This document shows positions 5,647 to 36,581 of a stretch of 64,000 bases of DNA, in pieces; position 1 is the stretch's first letter; the number at the start of each line of letters is the position of its first letter. This DNA is from an uncultured bacterium (GTDB taxonomy: Bacteria > Bacillota_I > Bacilli_A > RFN20 > CAG-826). Position numbers and translations under genes: made by a program. The stretch lies in contig CASFSS010000018.1 of assembly GCA_949297445.1 (NCBI GenBank), positions 62,001 through 126,000 of the forward strand, read 5' to 3'. The notes under the pieces are model-generated. The model was given only the letters and a program-made list of their open reading frames with translations, did not search any database and had not been told where the DNA came from.

Positions 5647-6204
5647 CTAATTTATATTTTCAAATTCTTTATATAAAGTCTTGATTACATCATTGTCAAA
5701 AGGAAATTGATGATTTTGAATCATTTTAAACACCAAATCCACACTATTAGATAAGATATTTCTAATCTCATCAGGATAACCTAACGAATTAGCGTGCTTG
5801 CGATATTCTCCTACATCCAATAACTTGGTTGAGCCGTCGCCAAATAGTTTGATGTCCAAATCATAATCGATAAACTTAATGTAACCTTTATCATAAATTG
5901 ATGGAGAAGCGATGTTAACATAATAGGTGATTGTATTGTCATCTTTAAACATAGCAATTACATTAAACCATTGCTTTTTCGAAAAGATAAAAATAGATGG
6001 TTCTTTAGTGTGCCATTTGCGGCCGTTATGCTCAATTACGGCGCTACGATTACTAGCTAAAACAAAATAATCGTCATCATCGCGTAAAACATAATTAAAG
6101 CTCCAAAGACGATGAAATGTACCATCGTGCTTATAAGCTTGTATTTTTAACCATTTTCCCCGCAATGTCTCACCCATTTTATTTAATTTTGTTAAATTCA
6201 GCAA
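5647..6204 (-). CDS. Nucleoside tri-/diphosphate phosphatase Ntdp (DUF402)
   Basis: This 185-residue protein matches the Ntdp/YgaC family (DUF402). It contains IQAYKHDGTFHRLW near the start, then HTKEPSIFIFSKKQWFNVIAMF, a Y-Y-V-N-I-A-S-P segment, and YIKFIDYDLDIKLFGDGSTKLLDVGEY, which carries the conserved acidic residues of the metal site. Characterised members remove phosphate from nucleoside tri- and diphosphates. The start overlaps the preceding membrane-protein gene by 26 nt; a later ATG at codon 10 (MGETLRGKWLKIQ) would shorten the overlap. The gene ends 2 nt from a convergent gene. Confidence 0.85.
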   Translation of the reverse strand: MLNLTKLNKMGETLRGKWLKIQAYKHDGTFHRLWSFNYVLRDDDDYFVLASNRSAVIEHNGRKWHTKEPSIFIFSKKQWFNVIAMFKDDNTITYYVNIASPSIYDKGYIKFIDYDLDIKLFGDGSTKLLDVGEYRKHANSLGYPDEIRNILSNSVDLVFKMIQNHQFPFDNDVIKTLYKEFENIN

Positions 6205-7297
6205 TTATTTTTGAAGCAGTAAGTATGTTACTTTTATAAACATCTAATGGCTTTAAATCTAATGGATTTTGGAGTGGCAAAACCATCAAACCGTCATTAT
6301 AGCCAAGCAAGACATAACAGCGATTTTTCTTGAGACAAATCGACACATCTAACAAGTCTTTATCAGTGTGAAATTCTTTAATTAACTTTTTAATTTTGCT
6401 ATTCAAATATTTAGCATAATCTTTCGAGTTAGAGTAGATGACCATTTTTTCATCGTCATGCTGAATTTGAATTCCTTCCATATTGGTTGGCGGGATAAGT
6501 GTTTTATCATCGCCTTTTAAATAAATTACGATTGGGTCATCACAAGCATAGTTTGCTGGCGCACTGATAAATTTGCCGACAAAAACAGGTAGCAAGCGCT
6601 TCTCATATTTAACCGAACCGGCGCAATCTGTTACCATTATCGGAATGTCGTGAAAGTTGTAATTGATGATTGAACGGCTACCAACCTGAATTATGTTGCG
6701 ATAAAGATCTGTTTCAATGAACTGAATAGGTTCAATCTTATCGTTAGGCTTAACAACAACATTTTGATATTTGTCAGCATCAAAAACATAGTTACTCGTA
6801 TATTTATAATAATCTTCAAAATAAACTTTTGTACGATGTTTTAGATAGAAACGAATAGCAATAGCGTAGGCGATAAAAATAACGAGGCCGACAATTGCCA
6901 GGGTAATAGTAATCCAAATTTCCCAATCCCATAAGGTTCCACCTAGCCAAGCAAAAATTACAATACCTAAAGATAATATAGAAACGATCCATTTAAATAT
7001 ATTTTGAATTTTATAAATTTTTAAAAATTTTAAACGGCGAGAATCAAACTCTTGTAAAAACACCGAGTCAAAACGAGTTTCGGAATCAGTCAAAACGTGG
7101 CTTTCAACATTAATCTCATCTTTTTTATTAGGTGTGCCAGCACTTATTTCGTCTTCAACTTCTTTGTTTTTTTCTACTTGCTCAGCGTATTCGGTCGCAA
7201 GATTTTCATTAACGTTTTTAGTCGTATCATTAACAATTTCGGTTTCTAATAAATCAGTAATATCTGGTGTTTCTCGTTTTTCTTCGCTCTTATCCAT
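6179..7297 (-). CDS. Two-pass membrane protein, DUF3137-like
   Basis: The 372 residues begin with about 100 acidic, Glu/Asn-rich residues. Two hydrophobic helices follow (around residues 105-125 and 130-150: IFKWIVSILSLGIVIFAWLG and WITITLAIVGLVIFIAYAIA), then a soluble C-terminal domain of about 220 residues. The arrangement, with the phrase YYKYTSNYVFDADKY just after the second helix, resembles DUF3137 proteins, but I cannot confirm that. ATG at 7297 has a GGAG SD. It is co-transcribed with and overlaps ntdp. Function unknown. Confidence 0.65.
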   Translation of the reverse strand: MDKSEEKRETPDITDLLETEIVNDTTKNVNENLATEYAEQVEKNKEVEDEISAGTPNKKDEINVESHVLTDSETRFDSVFLQEFDSRRLKFLKIYKIQNIFKWIVSILSLGIVIFAWLGGTLWDWEIWITITLAIVGLVIFIAYAIAIRFYLKHRTKVYFEDYYKYTSNYVFDADKYQNVVVKPNDKIEPIQFIETDLYRNIIQVGSRSIINYNFHDIPIMVTDCAGSVKYEKRLLPVFVGKFISAPANYACDDPIVIYLKGDDKTLIPPTNMEGIQIQHDDEKMVIYSNSKDYAKYLNSKIKKLIKEFHTDKDLLDVSICLKKNRCYVLLGYNDGLMVLPLQNPLDLKPLDVYKSNILTASKIIAEFNKIK

Positions 7298-7380: not shown

Positions 7381-8394
7381 TCACGGTTCAATTTGTATAT
7401 TCGTTCTTTTTTGATATAAACGGTCTAAAAGGCATAATGGTTTATATAAAGCAATTAGCAAAACGAGCATAATTCCACCACTTGGTAAAACATATAGTGC
7501 ATTATAAGCAAGCGATTCAACAAAAGGCGTTTCATAAAGAATAATGCCTGATAGCGTAGCGAATAACAAGCGTAGACAAGTCACGACAAGCGAACCGACA
7601 ATAAGAAACAAAACACTTTTTACAGTATATTTTGTACTATCTGGTTGAATAATTAATGGTTTGAAAAATCCTAACAAAGCAATCGAGCCATAAGCTAACA
7701 AATAATCAAATGGGTATGTATATAAGCCCCAACCATCAAAAAGGCAGGTTATTAAACCATATATAATTCCTATGCCGATGAATCCTTTATAAGGACCTTG
7801 CCGCAACGCCAAAATTGCTAAAGGGACAGTCGTAAACGAAATAGAACCGCCCGATGCACCTAAACTAATTTTTAATGCGTCTAAATCTAATCCAACCGCC
7901 AAAGCGATTAAAGTCGCAGCTTCAACAATTTCATATACCGAATATTGATTTTGAGAATTGAGTAAATAAAAAATTAGCAAGCAAGATAGCGCTAGAAAAA
8001 TGGCATATGTTAATGTGTATGGTGAGGTTATAAACGCTATATCAACATTTGCAAATAGAGAAGCAAAATTAGGCAAAGTAAACAATAAAATGGTCGCGAG
8101 CAAATAAAAAATTAAAGAAACCAATTCGATGTCTTTTATTTTATTTTTTAAAAGAAGAAGGGATGAGCCGATTGCCGGCAATAAAATTATTAATAATACA
8201 TTGATAGAAAACTCATATTCAAAAGGTGCAAAAGTTAAAGCAAAACCGTATACGGCGTTAGATGAATCATAAAGGATAGGCAAAACAAACAAAATTAAGG
8301 AAAGAAAGCCAATCGAAACGCTAATCCAATAAAATACTTTGTTAACTATTTGACTATAATTTTTCTTGTTGTTCTCGTTAGAATGCGATTCCAT
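7381..8394 (-). CDS. Thiamine-type ECF transporter S component (ThiT-like) with N-terminal membrane extension
   Basis: This 337-residue integral membrane protein has about five hydrophobic helices in residues 15-150, then a domain resembling ThiT, the thiamine-binding subunit of ECF transporters (about residues 150-320). The ThiT-like part has PLAILALRQGPYKGFIGIGIIYGL and a later YPFDYLLAYGSIALLGF. ThiT itself is about 180-200 residues, so the first half is extra; I do not recognise it. The TPP riboswitch directly upstream supports thiamine or a thiamine precursor as substrate. The shared ECF ATPase and EcfT genes are not in the window. Confidence 0.8.
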   Translation of the reverse strand: MESHSNENNKKNYSQIVNKVFYWISVSIGFLSLILFVLPILYDSSNAVYGFALTFAPFEYEFSINVLLIILLPAIGSSLLLLKNKIKDIELVSLIFYLLATILLFTLPNFASLFANVDIAFITSPYTLTYAIFLALSCLLIFYLLNSQNQYSVYEIVEAATLIALAVGLDLDALKISLGASGGSISFTTVPLAILALRQGPYKGFIGIGIIYGLITCLFDGWGLYTYPFDYLLAYGSIALLGFFKPLIIQPDSTKYTVKSVLFLIVGSLVVTCLRLLFATLSGIILYETPFVESLAYNALYVLPSGGIMLVLLIALYKPLCLLDRLYQKRTNIQIEP

Positions 8395-8416
8395 AAAAAA
8401 TCCTCCTCGCGGAGGA
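8395..8416 (-). terminator. Riboswitch expression platform: SD-sequestering terminator hairpin
   Basis: On the minus strand TCCTCC-GCGA-GGAGGA forms a perfect six-pair hairpin followed by TTTTTT and then the ATG. The 3' arm contains the only SD of the transporter gene. The 5' arm CCTCCGC (8409-8415) can instead pair perfectly over seven bases with GCGGAGG at 8435-8441, the 3' strand of the riboswitch. This is a switch between a free SD and a closed hairpin that may also terminate. Confidence 0.75.
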
Positions 8417-8429
8417 AAAAATTCTTATC

Positions 8430-8516
8430 GATTCCCTCCGCTAGCATTATCTAGATCAGGTACGGTTTCATCTATTAGCAAGATGATCTCAGCCGAATTA
8501 ATTCAGCACCCAAAAC
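8430..8516 (-). promoter_or_regulatory. TPP riboswitch (THI element)
   Basis: Read on the minus strand, the element holds the hallmark blocks in order: GGGTGCTG, CTGAGATCATC, then ACCTGATCTAGATAATGC and AGCGGAGGGAA. These are the pyrimidine- and pyrophosphate-sensing helices of the thiamine pyrophosphate aptamer. It lies directly upstream of the ThiT-like transporter and should shut it down when TPP is abundant. Confidence 0.95.
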
Positions 8517-8518
8517 GT

Positions 8519-8548
8519 ATTATATAACAAATTAATTGTTCCAAACAA
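8519..8548 (-). promoter_or_regulatory. Promoter of the TPP-riboswitch transcript
   Basis: TTGTTT and TATAAT with an 18-nt spacer on the minus strand; predicted start is just before the riboswitch. The -35 region lies inside the 3' end of ung. Confidence 0.55.
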
Positions 8549-9185
8549 TCGGTGTCACACCATTTTTTTCAAGAAATTCATTCGCTCGTTTAAATTGATT
8601 TTTATAAAACCAACCTCCACGATTGGCACTTAAAGGCGAAGGATGTACTGTCTCAATTACACAATGATTTTTATTGGTTACAAGTGTGGCGTAGCGACGG
8701 GCAAAAGAACCCCAAAGCAAAAAAACAATTGGCCGATTGATTGTGTCTAAATAACGCATCACGTCGTCCAAAAAAGATTCATAAAATTTAAAACTGTGCG
8801 ATAGCGGAGTGCTCTCCTTAACAGTCAAATATGCATTTAAAAGCAGAACACCTTGTTTGGCTAGATATGTTAAGTCTCCATCGGGCTTCATTTTCGTTCC
8901 AAATTCTATTTCTATTTCGCGATAAATATTGAGTAAGGATGGCGGAAGAGGAACGCCAGAATTTACCGAAAAGGCTAGACCATTCGCCTGATGTTTTTCA
9001 TGGTAAGGATCTTGACCAATTATAACCACTTTTACTTTGTCAAAAGGACACATTTTAAAAGCACGAAATACATCTTTGCGGGGCGGAAAAACAACTTCTT
9101 TTTCATAAATTTGATTAATGAAGGTAATCATTTCATGAAAATAAGGTTGCTCTTTGATTTGTTCAAGAGTAAGTGCTTCGCTCAT
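8532..9185 (-). CDS. ung: Uracil-DNA glycosylase
   Basis: Ung removes uracil from DNA to start base-excision repair. The 217-residue protein has the family 1 water-activating motif GQDPYHE (Asp59), the LLLNAYLTV stretch and the C-terminal catalytic HPSPLSANRGG loop. Length is normal. There is no SD before ATG 9185. Instead a perfect extended -10 (TGATATAAT) ends 9 nt upstream, so the mRNA should start at or within two or three bases of the ATG. It is divergent from a glycosyltransferase operon. Confidence 0.96.
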   Translation of the reverse strand: MSEALTLEQIKEQPYFHEMITFINQIYEKEVVFPPRKDVFRAFKMCPFDKVKVVIIGQDPYHEKHQANGLAFSVNSGVPLPPSLLNIYREIEIEFGTKMKPDGDLTYLAKQGVLLLNAYLTVKESTPLSHSFKFYESFLDDVMRYLDTINRPIVFLLWGSFARRYATLVTNKNHCVIETVHPSPLSANRGGWFYKNQFKRANEFLEKNGVTPIVWNN

Positions 9186-36192: not shown

Positions 36193-36581
36193 TGGTGGAG
36201 CCGACGGGAATTGCACCCGTGTCCAAGAATAGCCCTACGATGATGCCTACAGCTTAGCCAATCGTCATCTTTAATCTTGATTCAAATGTTGGCCTTTTTA
36301 TCAAGACGAGACAAACGTGATTTTATTTAAAGATAACTTGCCTACTTCCTTAAACTATCCTCTTGGTATGACACGTATTCCGAGCGTGAGAGGAAGAAAC
36401 CTCGGAGCGCGCGCTGCCTAGACTAAAGTCTAGAATCTATATCGATTGCTATTAAGCAGCAGCGTAACTGAGGCGCGAAGCACCCCTATAACTACTATTG
36501 GCAGTTATTTTCAAGATGATTACGTCATCACTCGGCTGCCATCAAAGAGAACGATACCCCTGTCGAAACTATATCGACCCC
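36193..36581 (-). ncRNA. ssrA: Transfer-messenger RNA (tmRNA)
   Basis: tmRNA rescues stalled ribosomes and tags their products for proteolysis. The 5' end GGGGTCG pairs with CGGCTCC before the encoded ACCA 3' end, forming the tRNA-like acceptor. The T-arm GGACACGGGTGCAATTCCCG (minus strand, near 36205-36225) and the 5' GTTTCGACAGGGG region are typical. The tag frame runs GCC (36500-36502) to TAA (36452-36454), then TAG. It encodes 16 residues, A-N-S-S-Y-R-G-A-S-R-L-S-Y-A-A-A, to which the first Ala of the charged tmRNA is added. The last residues are Y-A-A-A, not the widespread L-A-A. About 389 nt, single-piece form. Confidence 0.96.

What the first reader, a model, noticed from the sequence alone, without database searches (positions are those of the whole stretch)
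8395..8516. TPP riboswitch with a combined SD-sequestering and terminator switch
The 3' strand of the aptamer (GCGGAGG, 8435-8441) and the SD arm of the downstream hairpin (GAGGAGGA) compete for the same partner, CCTCCGC (8409-8415). Pairing in one state frees the ribosome binding site; in the other a hairpin closes it and is followed by six Ts right at the ATG. One hairpin thus could act at both transcription and translation level. The logic is visible in sequence; ligand response is inferred from the family.
Basis: partly seen in the sequence, partly recalled or inferred. Interest (0 to 1): 0.5.

Follow-up and report, generated by a model that had tools for sequence, protein, structure and literature searches.

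The report
TPP riboswitch fused to start signal
A vitamin B1 sensor in the messenger RNA of a thiamine-uptake gene appears able to stop transcription and hide the ribosome-binding site with one hairpin; this design is already described, but the relatives of this bacterium seem to carry an unusually stripped-down form of the sensor that begins right at the promoter.

Summary
Rfam finds one TPP aptamer at 8523-8416 (64.4 bits), upstream of a ThiT-like thiamine transporter ORF (ATG 8394). CCTCCGC (8415-8409) can pair with aptamer strand GCGGAGG (8441-8435) or with the Shine-Dalgarno arm GAGGAGGA (8408-8401), which is followed by T6 and ATG. Folding from the predicted start gives -32.5 kcal/mol for the antiterminator state and -29.5 for aptamer plus hairpin, so ligand-free RNA should be ON and TPP should turn it OFF.

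Comparison supports a dual platform. In 150 TPP loci of the same family, 68 place the main hairpin over the Shine-Dalgarno; 63 of those 68 have at least 5 T in the 8 nt before the start codon, against 7 of 74 loci with a separate terminator and 10 of 146 ordinary starts. Six use the aptamer's own strand as Shine-Dalgarno. Dual platforms were described by Barrick and Breaker in 2007: a new member of a known kind.

The unexpected result is upstream. In this family a -10 box ends 4-12 nt before P2 in 129 of 150 loci (shuffle mean 25), and P1 pairing is barely above shuffles; 31 of 45 control loci keep P1. The transcript probably starts at P2, without P1. Start sites and ligand response are untested.

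The parts
8543..8548 (-). weak -35-like TTGTTT, 18 nt upstream of the -10 box
   Evidence: read; only TTG matches the consensus; inference
8519..8524 (-). -10 box TATAAT; its last base lies 7 nt before the first P2 nucleotide (8512)
   Evidence: sequence; a -10 box is phased to P2 in 129 of 150 family loci
8512..8512 (-). predicted transcription start, first nucleotide of P2 (inferred, not mapped)
   Evidence: standard -10 to +1 spacing (recalled)
8416..8523 (-). TPP riboswitch aptamer as matched by Rfam RF00059
   Evidence: cmscan 64.4 bits, E 2.3e-10
8435..8441 (-). aptamer 3' strand GCGGAGG (end of P5, J5-4, P4 3' strand): first partner of CCTCCGC
8409..8415 (-). CCTCCGC: shared partner of the aptamer strand and of the Shine-Dalgarno arm
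8401..8416 (-). terminator and sequestor hairpin U-CCUCC-GCGA-GGAGG-A (-9.7 kcal/mol)
8402..8407 (-). Shine-Dalgarno AGGAGG inside the 3' arm of the hairpin
8395..8400 (-). T6 tract: U tract of the terminator and spacer to the start codon
7381..8394 (-). thiT-like ORF, 337 aa; Thia_YuaJ domain at residues 157-318
   Evidence: PF09515, 65.5 bits, cut-off 25.8; TIGR02357 only 47.7 bits, cut-off 108.45
8532..9185 (-). upstream neighbour ung (uracil-DNA glycosylase), with 7 nt between its stop codon and the -10 box
   Evidence: NF003592, 258.9 bits; coordinates

Best explanation
A TPP-sensing OFF switch for thiamine uptake with a dual expression platform. Transcription starts near 8512, at P2 (inferred from the -10 box). 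The nascent RNA first folds the aptamer core P2-P5 (predicted). Without TPP, the emerging CCUCCGC invades P4 and J5-4 and pairs with GCGGAGG; the Shine-Dalgarno stays free and thiT is expressed (predicted). With TPP bound, P4 is held, CCUCCGC pairs with the Shine-Dalgarno arm, and RNA polymerase meets a hairpin followed by U6 immediately before the AUG. Most transcripts then end there, and transcripts that read through carry a closed ribosome-binding site (inferred). One CCUCC element can serve both states because the conserved aptamer 3' strand GGAGG is itself Shine-Dalgarno-like.
For: RF00059 match. Thia_YuaJ ORF starting at the T tract. From the predicted start the MFE of the 80-96 nt transcripts has the aptamer helices P2-P5; at 118 nt the antiterminator state is -32.5 and aptamer plus terminator -29.5 kcal/mol. 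Both other genomes of the genus are fused. Family survey of 150 loci: 68 fused, 74 with a separate terminator, 74 of those 74 with at least 5 U of 8 after the stem. At least 5 T in the 8 nt before the start: 63 of 68 fused, 7 of 74 separate, 10 of 146 starts of this genome. Own aptamer-arm pairs beat swapped pairs in both classes: fused -11.86 vs -11.05 (56 loci), separate -11.03 vs -8.95 kcal/mol (71 loci). Of 33 loci that I place outside the group by record title, 31 have an SD hairpin at or below -6 kcal/mol.
Against: No measurement of termination, translation or TPP binding. The hairpin has only 6 bp. A terminator scan of the region is not above chance. Own and swapped pairs are not phylogenetically independent, and the fused difference is small (0.8 kcal/mol). 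Five fused loci (four of genus g6, and L147) have the SD hairpin without a T tract, so sequestration alone may suffice in relatives. The RNA-level evidence is predicted energies only, without tertiary contacts or ligand.
Confidence: 0.8

Rival explanations
1. Translation-only switch: the hairpin hides the Shine-Dalgarno and T6 is merely an AT-rich spacer.
For: Four loci of genus g6 and L147 have an SD hairpin without a T tract. The hairpin is short.
Against: 63 of 68 fused loci have at least 5 T in the 8 nt before the start, against 7 of 74 loci of the same family with a separate terminator and 10 of 146 SD-coupled starts of this genome. A T-rich spacer is thus tied to the fused arrangement.
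Confidence: 0.15
2. Transcription-only switch: the Shine-Dalgarno lies in the terminator stem simply to save space, and translation control contributes nothing.
For: 74 of 150 relatives use a separate terminator plus separate Shine-Dalgarno, so termination is common here. Terminated RNAs lack the ORF anyway.
Against: The hairpin pairs GGAGG of the Shine-Dalgarno, so read-through RNA in the bound state would be closed by the same pairing. In genus g6 (4 loci) and g9 (5 loci) no terminator was found and hiding the Shine-Dalgarno is the only visible route.
Confidence: 0.25
3. P1 does form, because the RNA starts further upstream, for example by read-through from ung; the -10 phasing is incidental.
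For: Rfam aligns the whole model, P1 region included. P1 pairing in the family is slightly above shuffles, 0.45 vs 0.42, 15 of 500 shuffles as high. The ung stop codon is 7 nt upstream of the -10 box.
Against: The same test gives 0.75 vs 0.42 in 45 loci of other families; a -10 box is phased to P2 in 129 of 150 family loci against a shuffle mean of 25. P2 pairs strongly (131 of 150 fully paired vs 73 shuffled).
Confidence: 0.2

Closest known systems
Dual transcription/translation expression platform of riboswitches (Barrick and Breaker 2007, PMC2258182, passages and section 9 seen; they say the same mechanisms were predicted for TPP in their ref. 48, which I recall as Rodionov et al. 2002 and have not read)
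   Same: [quoted passage not shown] their distance rule (10 nt or less between hairpin and start codon) is met here (6 nt).
   Different: The aptamer here appears to lack P1, whereas their Figure 2 (legend seen) depicts OFF switches with a P1 switching helix; here the switching strand is the P4 3' strand and J5-4.
Direct translation attenuation by TPP aptamers (RBS in the aptamer core; same paper)
   Same: Found in relatives: genus g9 (5 loci) and L071 (g23) have GCGGAGG as the Shine-Dalgarno.
   Different: Not the mechanism of the window locus, which has a separate Shine-Dalgarno.
TPP riboswitches acting at two levels: forms with Rho-dependent termination (passage in review PMC10907184) and Enterococcus faecium thiT, which responded in both translational and transcriptional fusions (passages of PMC12632268)
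   Same: Control at two levels by one TPP aptamer, in one case on thiT.
   Different: In the first the transcription part is indirect, through Rho; for the second no shared SD-terminator hairpin was described in the passages seen.
Covariation model of transcriptional TPP riboswitches (PMC13273304, passages seen)
   Same: Aptamer and terminator compete for aptamer 3' nucleotides.
   Different: Their model has two nucleotides shared between aptamer and platform; here the 7-nt GCGGAGG is shared.

Membership tests
TPP riboswitch (Rfam RF00059) | covariance-model score above the gathering score | tested here: met
   64.4 vs 54.3 bits
TPP riboswitch (Rfam RF00059) | conserved P2-P5 core with CUGAGA and the P4/J5-4 strand | tested here: met
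   alignment; P2 covariation in the family
TPP riboswitch (Rfam RF00059) | P1 helix closing the junction | tested here: inconclusive
   family-level P1 pairing 0.45 vs 0.42 shuffled; 0.75 vs 0.42 in 45 control loci. In the window the Rfam alignment flags non-standard pairs in the outer stem. Start site not mapped.
TPP riboswitch (Rfam RF00059) | controls a thiamine gene | tested here: met
   PF09515 Thia_YuaJ downstream; also in the 5 relatives given to Pfam of 12 translated
TPP riboswitch (Rfam RF00059) | binds TPP and changes expression | not testable with these tools
   needs an experiment
Dual expression platform (Barrick and Breaker 2007) | intrinsic terminator hairpin followed by a U tract | tested here: met
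   6-bp hairpin, -9.7 kcal/mol, then U6; sequence feature only, termination not measured
Dual expression platform (Barrick and Breaker 2007) | RBS inside the terminator's 3' arm, hairpin within 10 nt of the start codon | tested here: met
   AGGAGG 8407-8402 in the hairpin; 6 nt to ATG
Dual expression platform (Barrick and Breaker 2007) | mutually exclusive antiterminator with the aptamer | tested here: met
   10-pair helix in the MFE fold; swap test
ECF thiamine transporter ThiT | TIGR02357 equivalog cut-off | tested here: not met
   47.7 vs 108.45 bits; hence called ThiT-like

The most novel reading that the evidence does not exclude
A whole uncultured family of Bacilli (and its sister family f2, 4 loci) uses a minimal TPP riboswitch that lacks P1. 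The promoter's -10 box lies right before P2, where the P1 5' strand would be, the RNA begins at P2, P2 is reduced to 3 bp and J2-4 usually to 2 nt, and switching runs through P4 and J5-4. On this minimal aptamer the lineage has exchanged three platforms, probably more than once: separate terminator, fused Shine-Dalgarno terminator, and aptamer-embedded Shine-Dalgarno.
Probability: 0.6. Interest if true: 0.5.

Novelty: new variant of a known kind. Interest (0 to 1): 0.36.

Why it matters
The dual hairpin itself is known, but this family offers a natural series in which relatives carry the same aptamer with a separate terminator, with the fused form, or with Shine-Dalgarno hiding only, so the contribution of each level could be compared directly. 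If the RNA truly starts at P2, TPP sensing does not need P1, which would revise the minimal aptamer. It may also explain why only 66 of 196 genomes pass the Rfam gathering score although 181 of 196 have a match at E 0.001 or better, so annotation that uses that score may miss many of them.

Tried and rejected
A reading in which T6 is only a spacer was tested against start-codon spacers of the same genome and of the family, and is disfavoured. Folding with upstream sequence hid the aptamer; folding from the predicted start showed it (there P2 pairs as GGU/ACC, a register slightly different from the 3-bp P2 scored). A genome-wide count of GGAGGN{0,2}TTTTTTATG found 6 places. Four (L238-L241) begin with one identical ORF stretch beside tRNA-like sequence and show no TPP aptamer in the stretch viewed. 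One (C16) precedes a rubrerythrin-like ORF without an obvious hairpin (name and absence judged by eye). One is thiT. So that spacer motif alone is not diagnostic.

Parsing errors to know of. The first classification chose wrong starts in several loci; searches use starts set by hand for L066, L102, L120, L144, L056 and L122. The swap test still uses the classes. In one search the U count after the stem can include the T of ATG, and gives 61 of 68; L121 and L144 fail there only because the script chose another hairpin end. One search counts the 8 nt before the start, as the background does, and gives 63 of 68. The first P2 parses misplaced the 3' strand in some loci; one search replaces them, and the window's own row (L001) is still misparsed there and counts as unpaired. 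The P1 controls drop 3 of 48 loci (L286, L296, L300) and one more (L329); one of the 150 family loci was left out (149 used).

Results against a unique P1 loss. The 45 control loci include the 30 best-scoring of the class search, and the score rewards P1, so they favour P1. With 28 further genomes from families that I picked because P1 looked weak there, 33 of 72 control loci (my sum over, f2 left out) have at least 4 of 5 pairs: clear in f10 (9 of 9) and f19 (7 of 7), weak in f13 (1 of 11), f22 (1 of 7), f5 (0 of 3), f20 (0 of 2), f6 (2 of 6) and f17 (2 of 6); f22 may use a register shifted by one (by eye). Nine Chloroflexi loci also lack P1 in the canonical register (0.40 vs 0.43 shuffled), while 24 other outside loci have it (0.66 vs 0.50; 13 of 24 with at least 4 of 5 pairs). 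13 of 45 control loci also have a -10-like hexamer within 11 nt of P2.

Rfam at gathering thresholds on 368 kb of the contig found no other riboswitch. Literature searches aimed at a P1-less TPP riboswitch showed none that I recognised in the listings; one search listed only 20 of 131 papers, only 10 of 12, only 8 of 9, and subscription journals are mostly not held. Searches for dual platforms were.

Full report
What is there. The element lies on the minus strand. Rfam places one TPP aptamer at 8523-8416, 64.4 bits against a gathering score of 54.3; the search of the held 1.12-Mb genome gave no second match at E 0.001 or better. It follows ung (8532-9185) and precedes a 337-aa ORF (7381-8394) whose residues 157-318 match Thia_YuaJ. 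That ORF fails the stricter TIGR02357 cut-off, so I call it ThiT-like.

The switch. From the predicted transcription start (8512), transcripts of 80-96 nt show the aptamer helices P2-P5 in the MFE prediction. When CCUCCGC emerges, the lowest-energy fold contains the 10-pair helix GCGGAGGGAA/UUUCCUCCGC, -32.5 kcal/mol for the 118-nt RNA. Keeping the aptamer and closing the hairpin costs 3 kcal/mol (-29.5). So without ligand the Shine-Dalgarno is predicted free; TPP binding would need to supply about 3 kcal/mol to close it. Predicted energies do not show what happens in a cell.

Comparative survey. RF00059 is found in 181 of 196 genomes of the family at E 0.001 or better, 66 of 196 above the gathering score. 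I read 150 loci from 149 genomes (count): the three of the genus and the places listed. Weaker matches that one search did not list were not read, except six fetched later (L276-L281) and not counted. Classified without requiring a U tract: 68 of 150 have the strongest hairpin ending 13 nt or less before the start codon; 74 have it further upstream, all 74 with at least 5 U in the next 8 nt; 6 have the start codon just after the aptamer, with GCGGAGG as Shine-Dalgarno; 1 has no hairpin; 1 has no start. Genera g13, g18, g22, g24, g26 and g30 contain both fused and separate forms (in g26 the fused one is L147, without a T tract), so the platform seems to change readily. I did not build a tree.

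Is the T tract a terminator or a spacer? At least 5 T in the 8 nt before the start codon: 63 of 68 fused loci, 7 of 74 loci with a separate terminator, and 10 of 146 SD-coupled ATG starts in 368 kb of this genome. The T tract thus goes with the fused hairpin, which favours selection for termination. The pairing competition is supported by a swap test: own aptamer-arm duplexes average -11.86 kcal/mol vs -11.05 swapped in 56 fused loci, and -11.03 vs -8.95 in 71 separate-terminator loci, classes as. Shared ancestry inflates such tests.

Outside the family. A pattern scan of the genome collection (84,980 species) returned 68 stretches with the aptamer 3' end, GGAGG, T5 and ATG. By record title I place 33 outside the uncultured Bacilli group, in Clostridium, Anaerococcus, Diplocloster, other Lachnospiraceae, Anaerolineales, Treponema and others (assignment by title only). 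31 of these 33 have an SD hairpin at or below -6 kcal/mol. The architecture is therefore widespread. It was described by Barrick and Breaker in 2007 as a dual expression platform, next to the direct form with the RBS in the aptamer core (PMC2258182: passages, section 9). A thiT TPP riboswitch of Enterococcus faecium responded in both translational and transcriptional fusions (PMC12632268, passages).

The unexpected part: no P1. In the 150 loci a TATAAT-like hexamer (at least 5 of 6) ends 4-12 nt before the first P2 nucleotide in 129, against a mean of 25 and a maximum of 32 in 50 dinucleotide shuffles; the peak is 7 nt. By the usual spacing (recalled) the first transcribed base is then the first base of P2. 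The P1 strands pair in 0.45 of cells vs 0.42 when partners are shuffled, and 20 of 149 loci have at least 4 of 5 pairs vs 15.0 shuffled. In 45 loci from other families of the class the figures are 0.75 vs 0.42 and 31 of 45 vs 5.9; there the nearest -10-like hexamer lies 12 nt or more away in 28 of 45, within 11 nt in 13, and is absent in 4. P2 is under selection: all three pairs form in 131 of 150 vs 73 shuffled, with C-G 59, T-A 33, T-G 30, G-C 5 and A-T 5 at the closing pair and G-C 119, C-G 24 at the second. J2-4 is 2 nt in 104 of 150. The sister family f2 looks similar (4 loci, two of them near-identical: P1 0.30 vs 0.32, a -10-like hexamer within 11 nt in 4 of 4).

Limits of that claim. 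The control loci include the 30 best-scoring of the class search, and the score rewards P1; 28 further genomes from families that looked weak bring the controls to 33 of 72 loci with at least 4 of 5 pairs (my sum over). P1 weakness is therefore not unique to this family, and Chloroflexi loci show it too. The close phasing of the -10 box to P2 is the distinctive feature. Within the family, selection by the same score runs against finding P1-less loci.

Why one CCUCC can serve both states. The aptamer's 3' purine strand GGAGG resembles a Shine-Dalgarno, as Barrick and Breaker noted for direct attenuation. An anti-Shine-Dalgarno therefore automatically competes with the aptamer, which may make the fused platform easy to evolve (inference).

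Taxonomy. Two members of the genus have contigs of the same lengths (67,499 and 8,957) as CASFQR010000002.1 and CASFSG010000032.1, records titled 'uncultured bacterium' (match by length). Titles of many matching relatives read uncultured Bacilli or Erysipelotrichaceae. GTDB order RF39 is my recollection of a likely home, not a result.

Verdict. The dual hairpin is a new member of a known kind. The probable P1-less, promoter-abutting aptamer is the new variant worth testing.

Noticed in passing
L238-L241; G000 contigs C1, C8, C9, C10: An ORF with an identical start (MKLTLEEKLRLVKLHIFDGVPIREIHEK...) and identical leader sits beside different tRNA-like sequences, near contig ends in at least C8 and C9; it looks like a mobile element inserted next to tRNAs (tRNAs judged by eye).
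   Followed up: partly
window 7381-8394 and relatives: The ThiT-like proteins of several relatives carry an N-terminal membrane-type extension of about 150 residues before the Thia_YuaJ domain; others (L013, L080) are of standard length.
   Followed up: partly
L013, L035, L040, L041, L088 (genus g9) and L071 (g23): The aptamer strand GCGGAGG is itself the Shine-Dalgarno, a few nt before ATG, with no further expression platform seen.
   Followed up: partly
L052, L064, L080, L081 (genus g6): SD-sequestering hairpin without a T tract: apparently translation-only relatives.
   Followed up: partly
window 5647-6204 and 6179-7297, minus: Two minus-strand ORFs overlap by 26 nt: an NtdP/DUF402-like protein starting at TTG, and an orphan 372-aa ORF without Pfam or NCBIfam match at E 0.001.
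   Followed up: no
window 36193-36581, minus: tmRNA gene, tag ANSSYRGASRLSYAAA.
   Followed up: no
L053, L055: TPP leaders with about 236 nt between aptamer and start codon, far longer than in most of the 150 loci.
   Followed up: no
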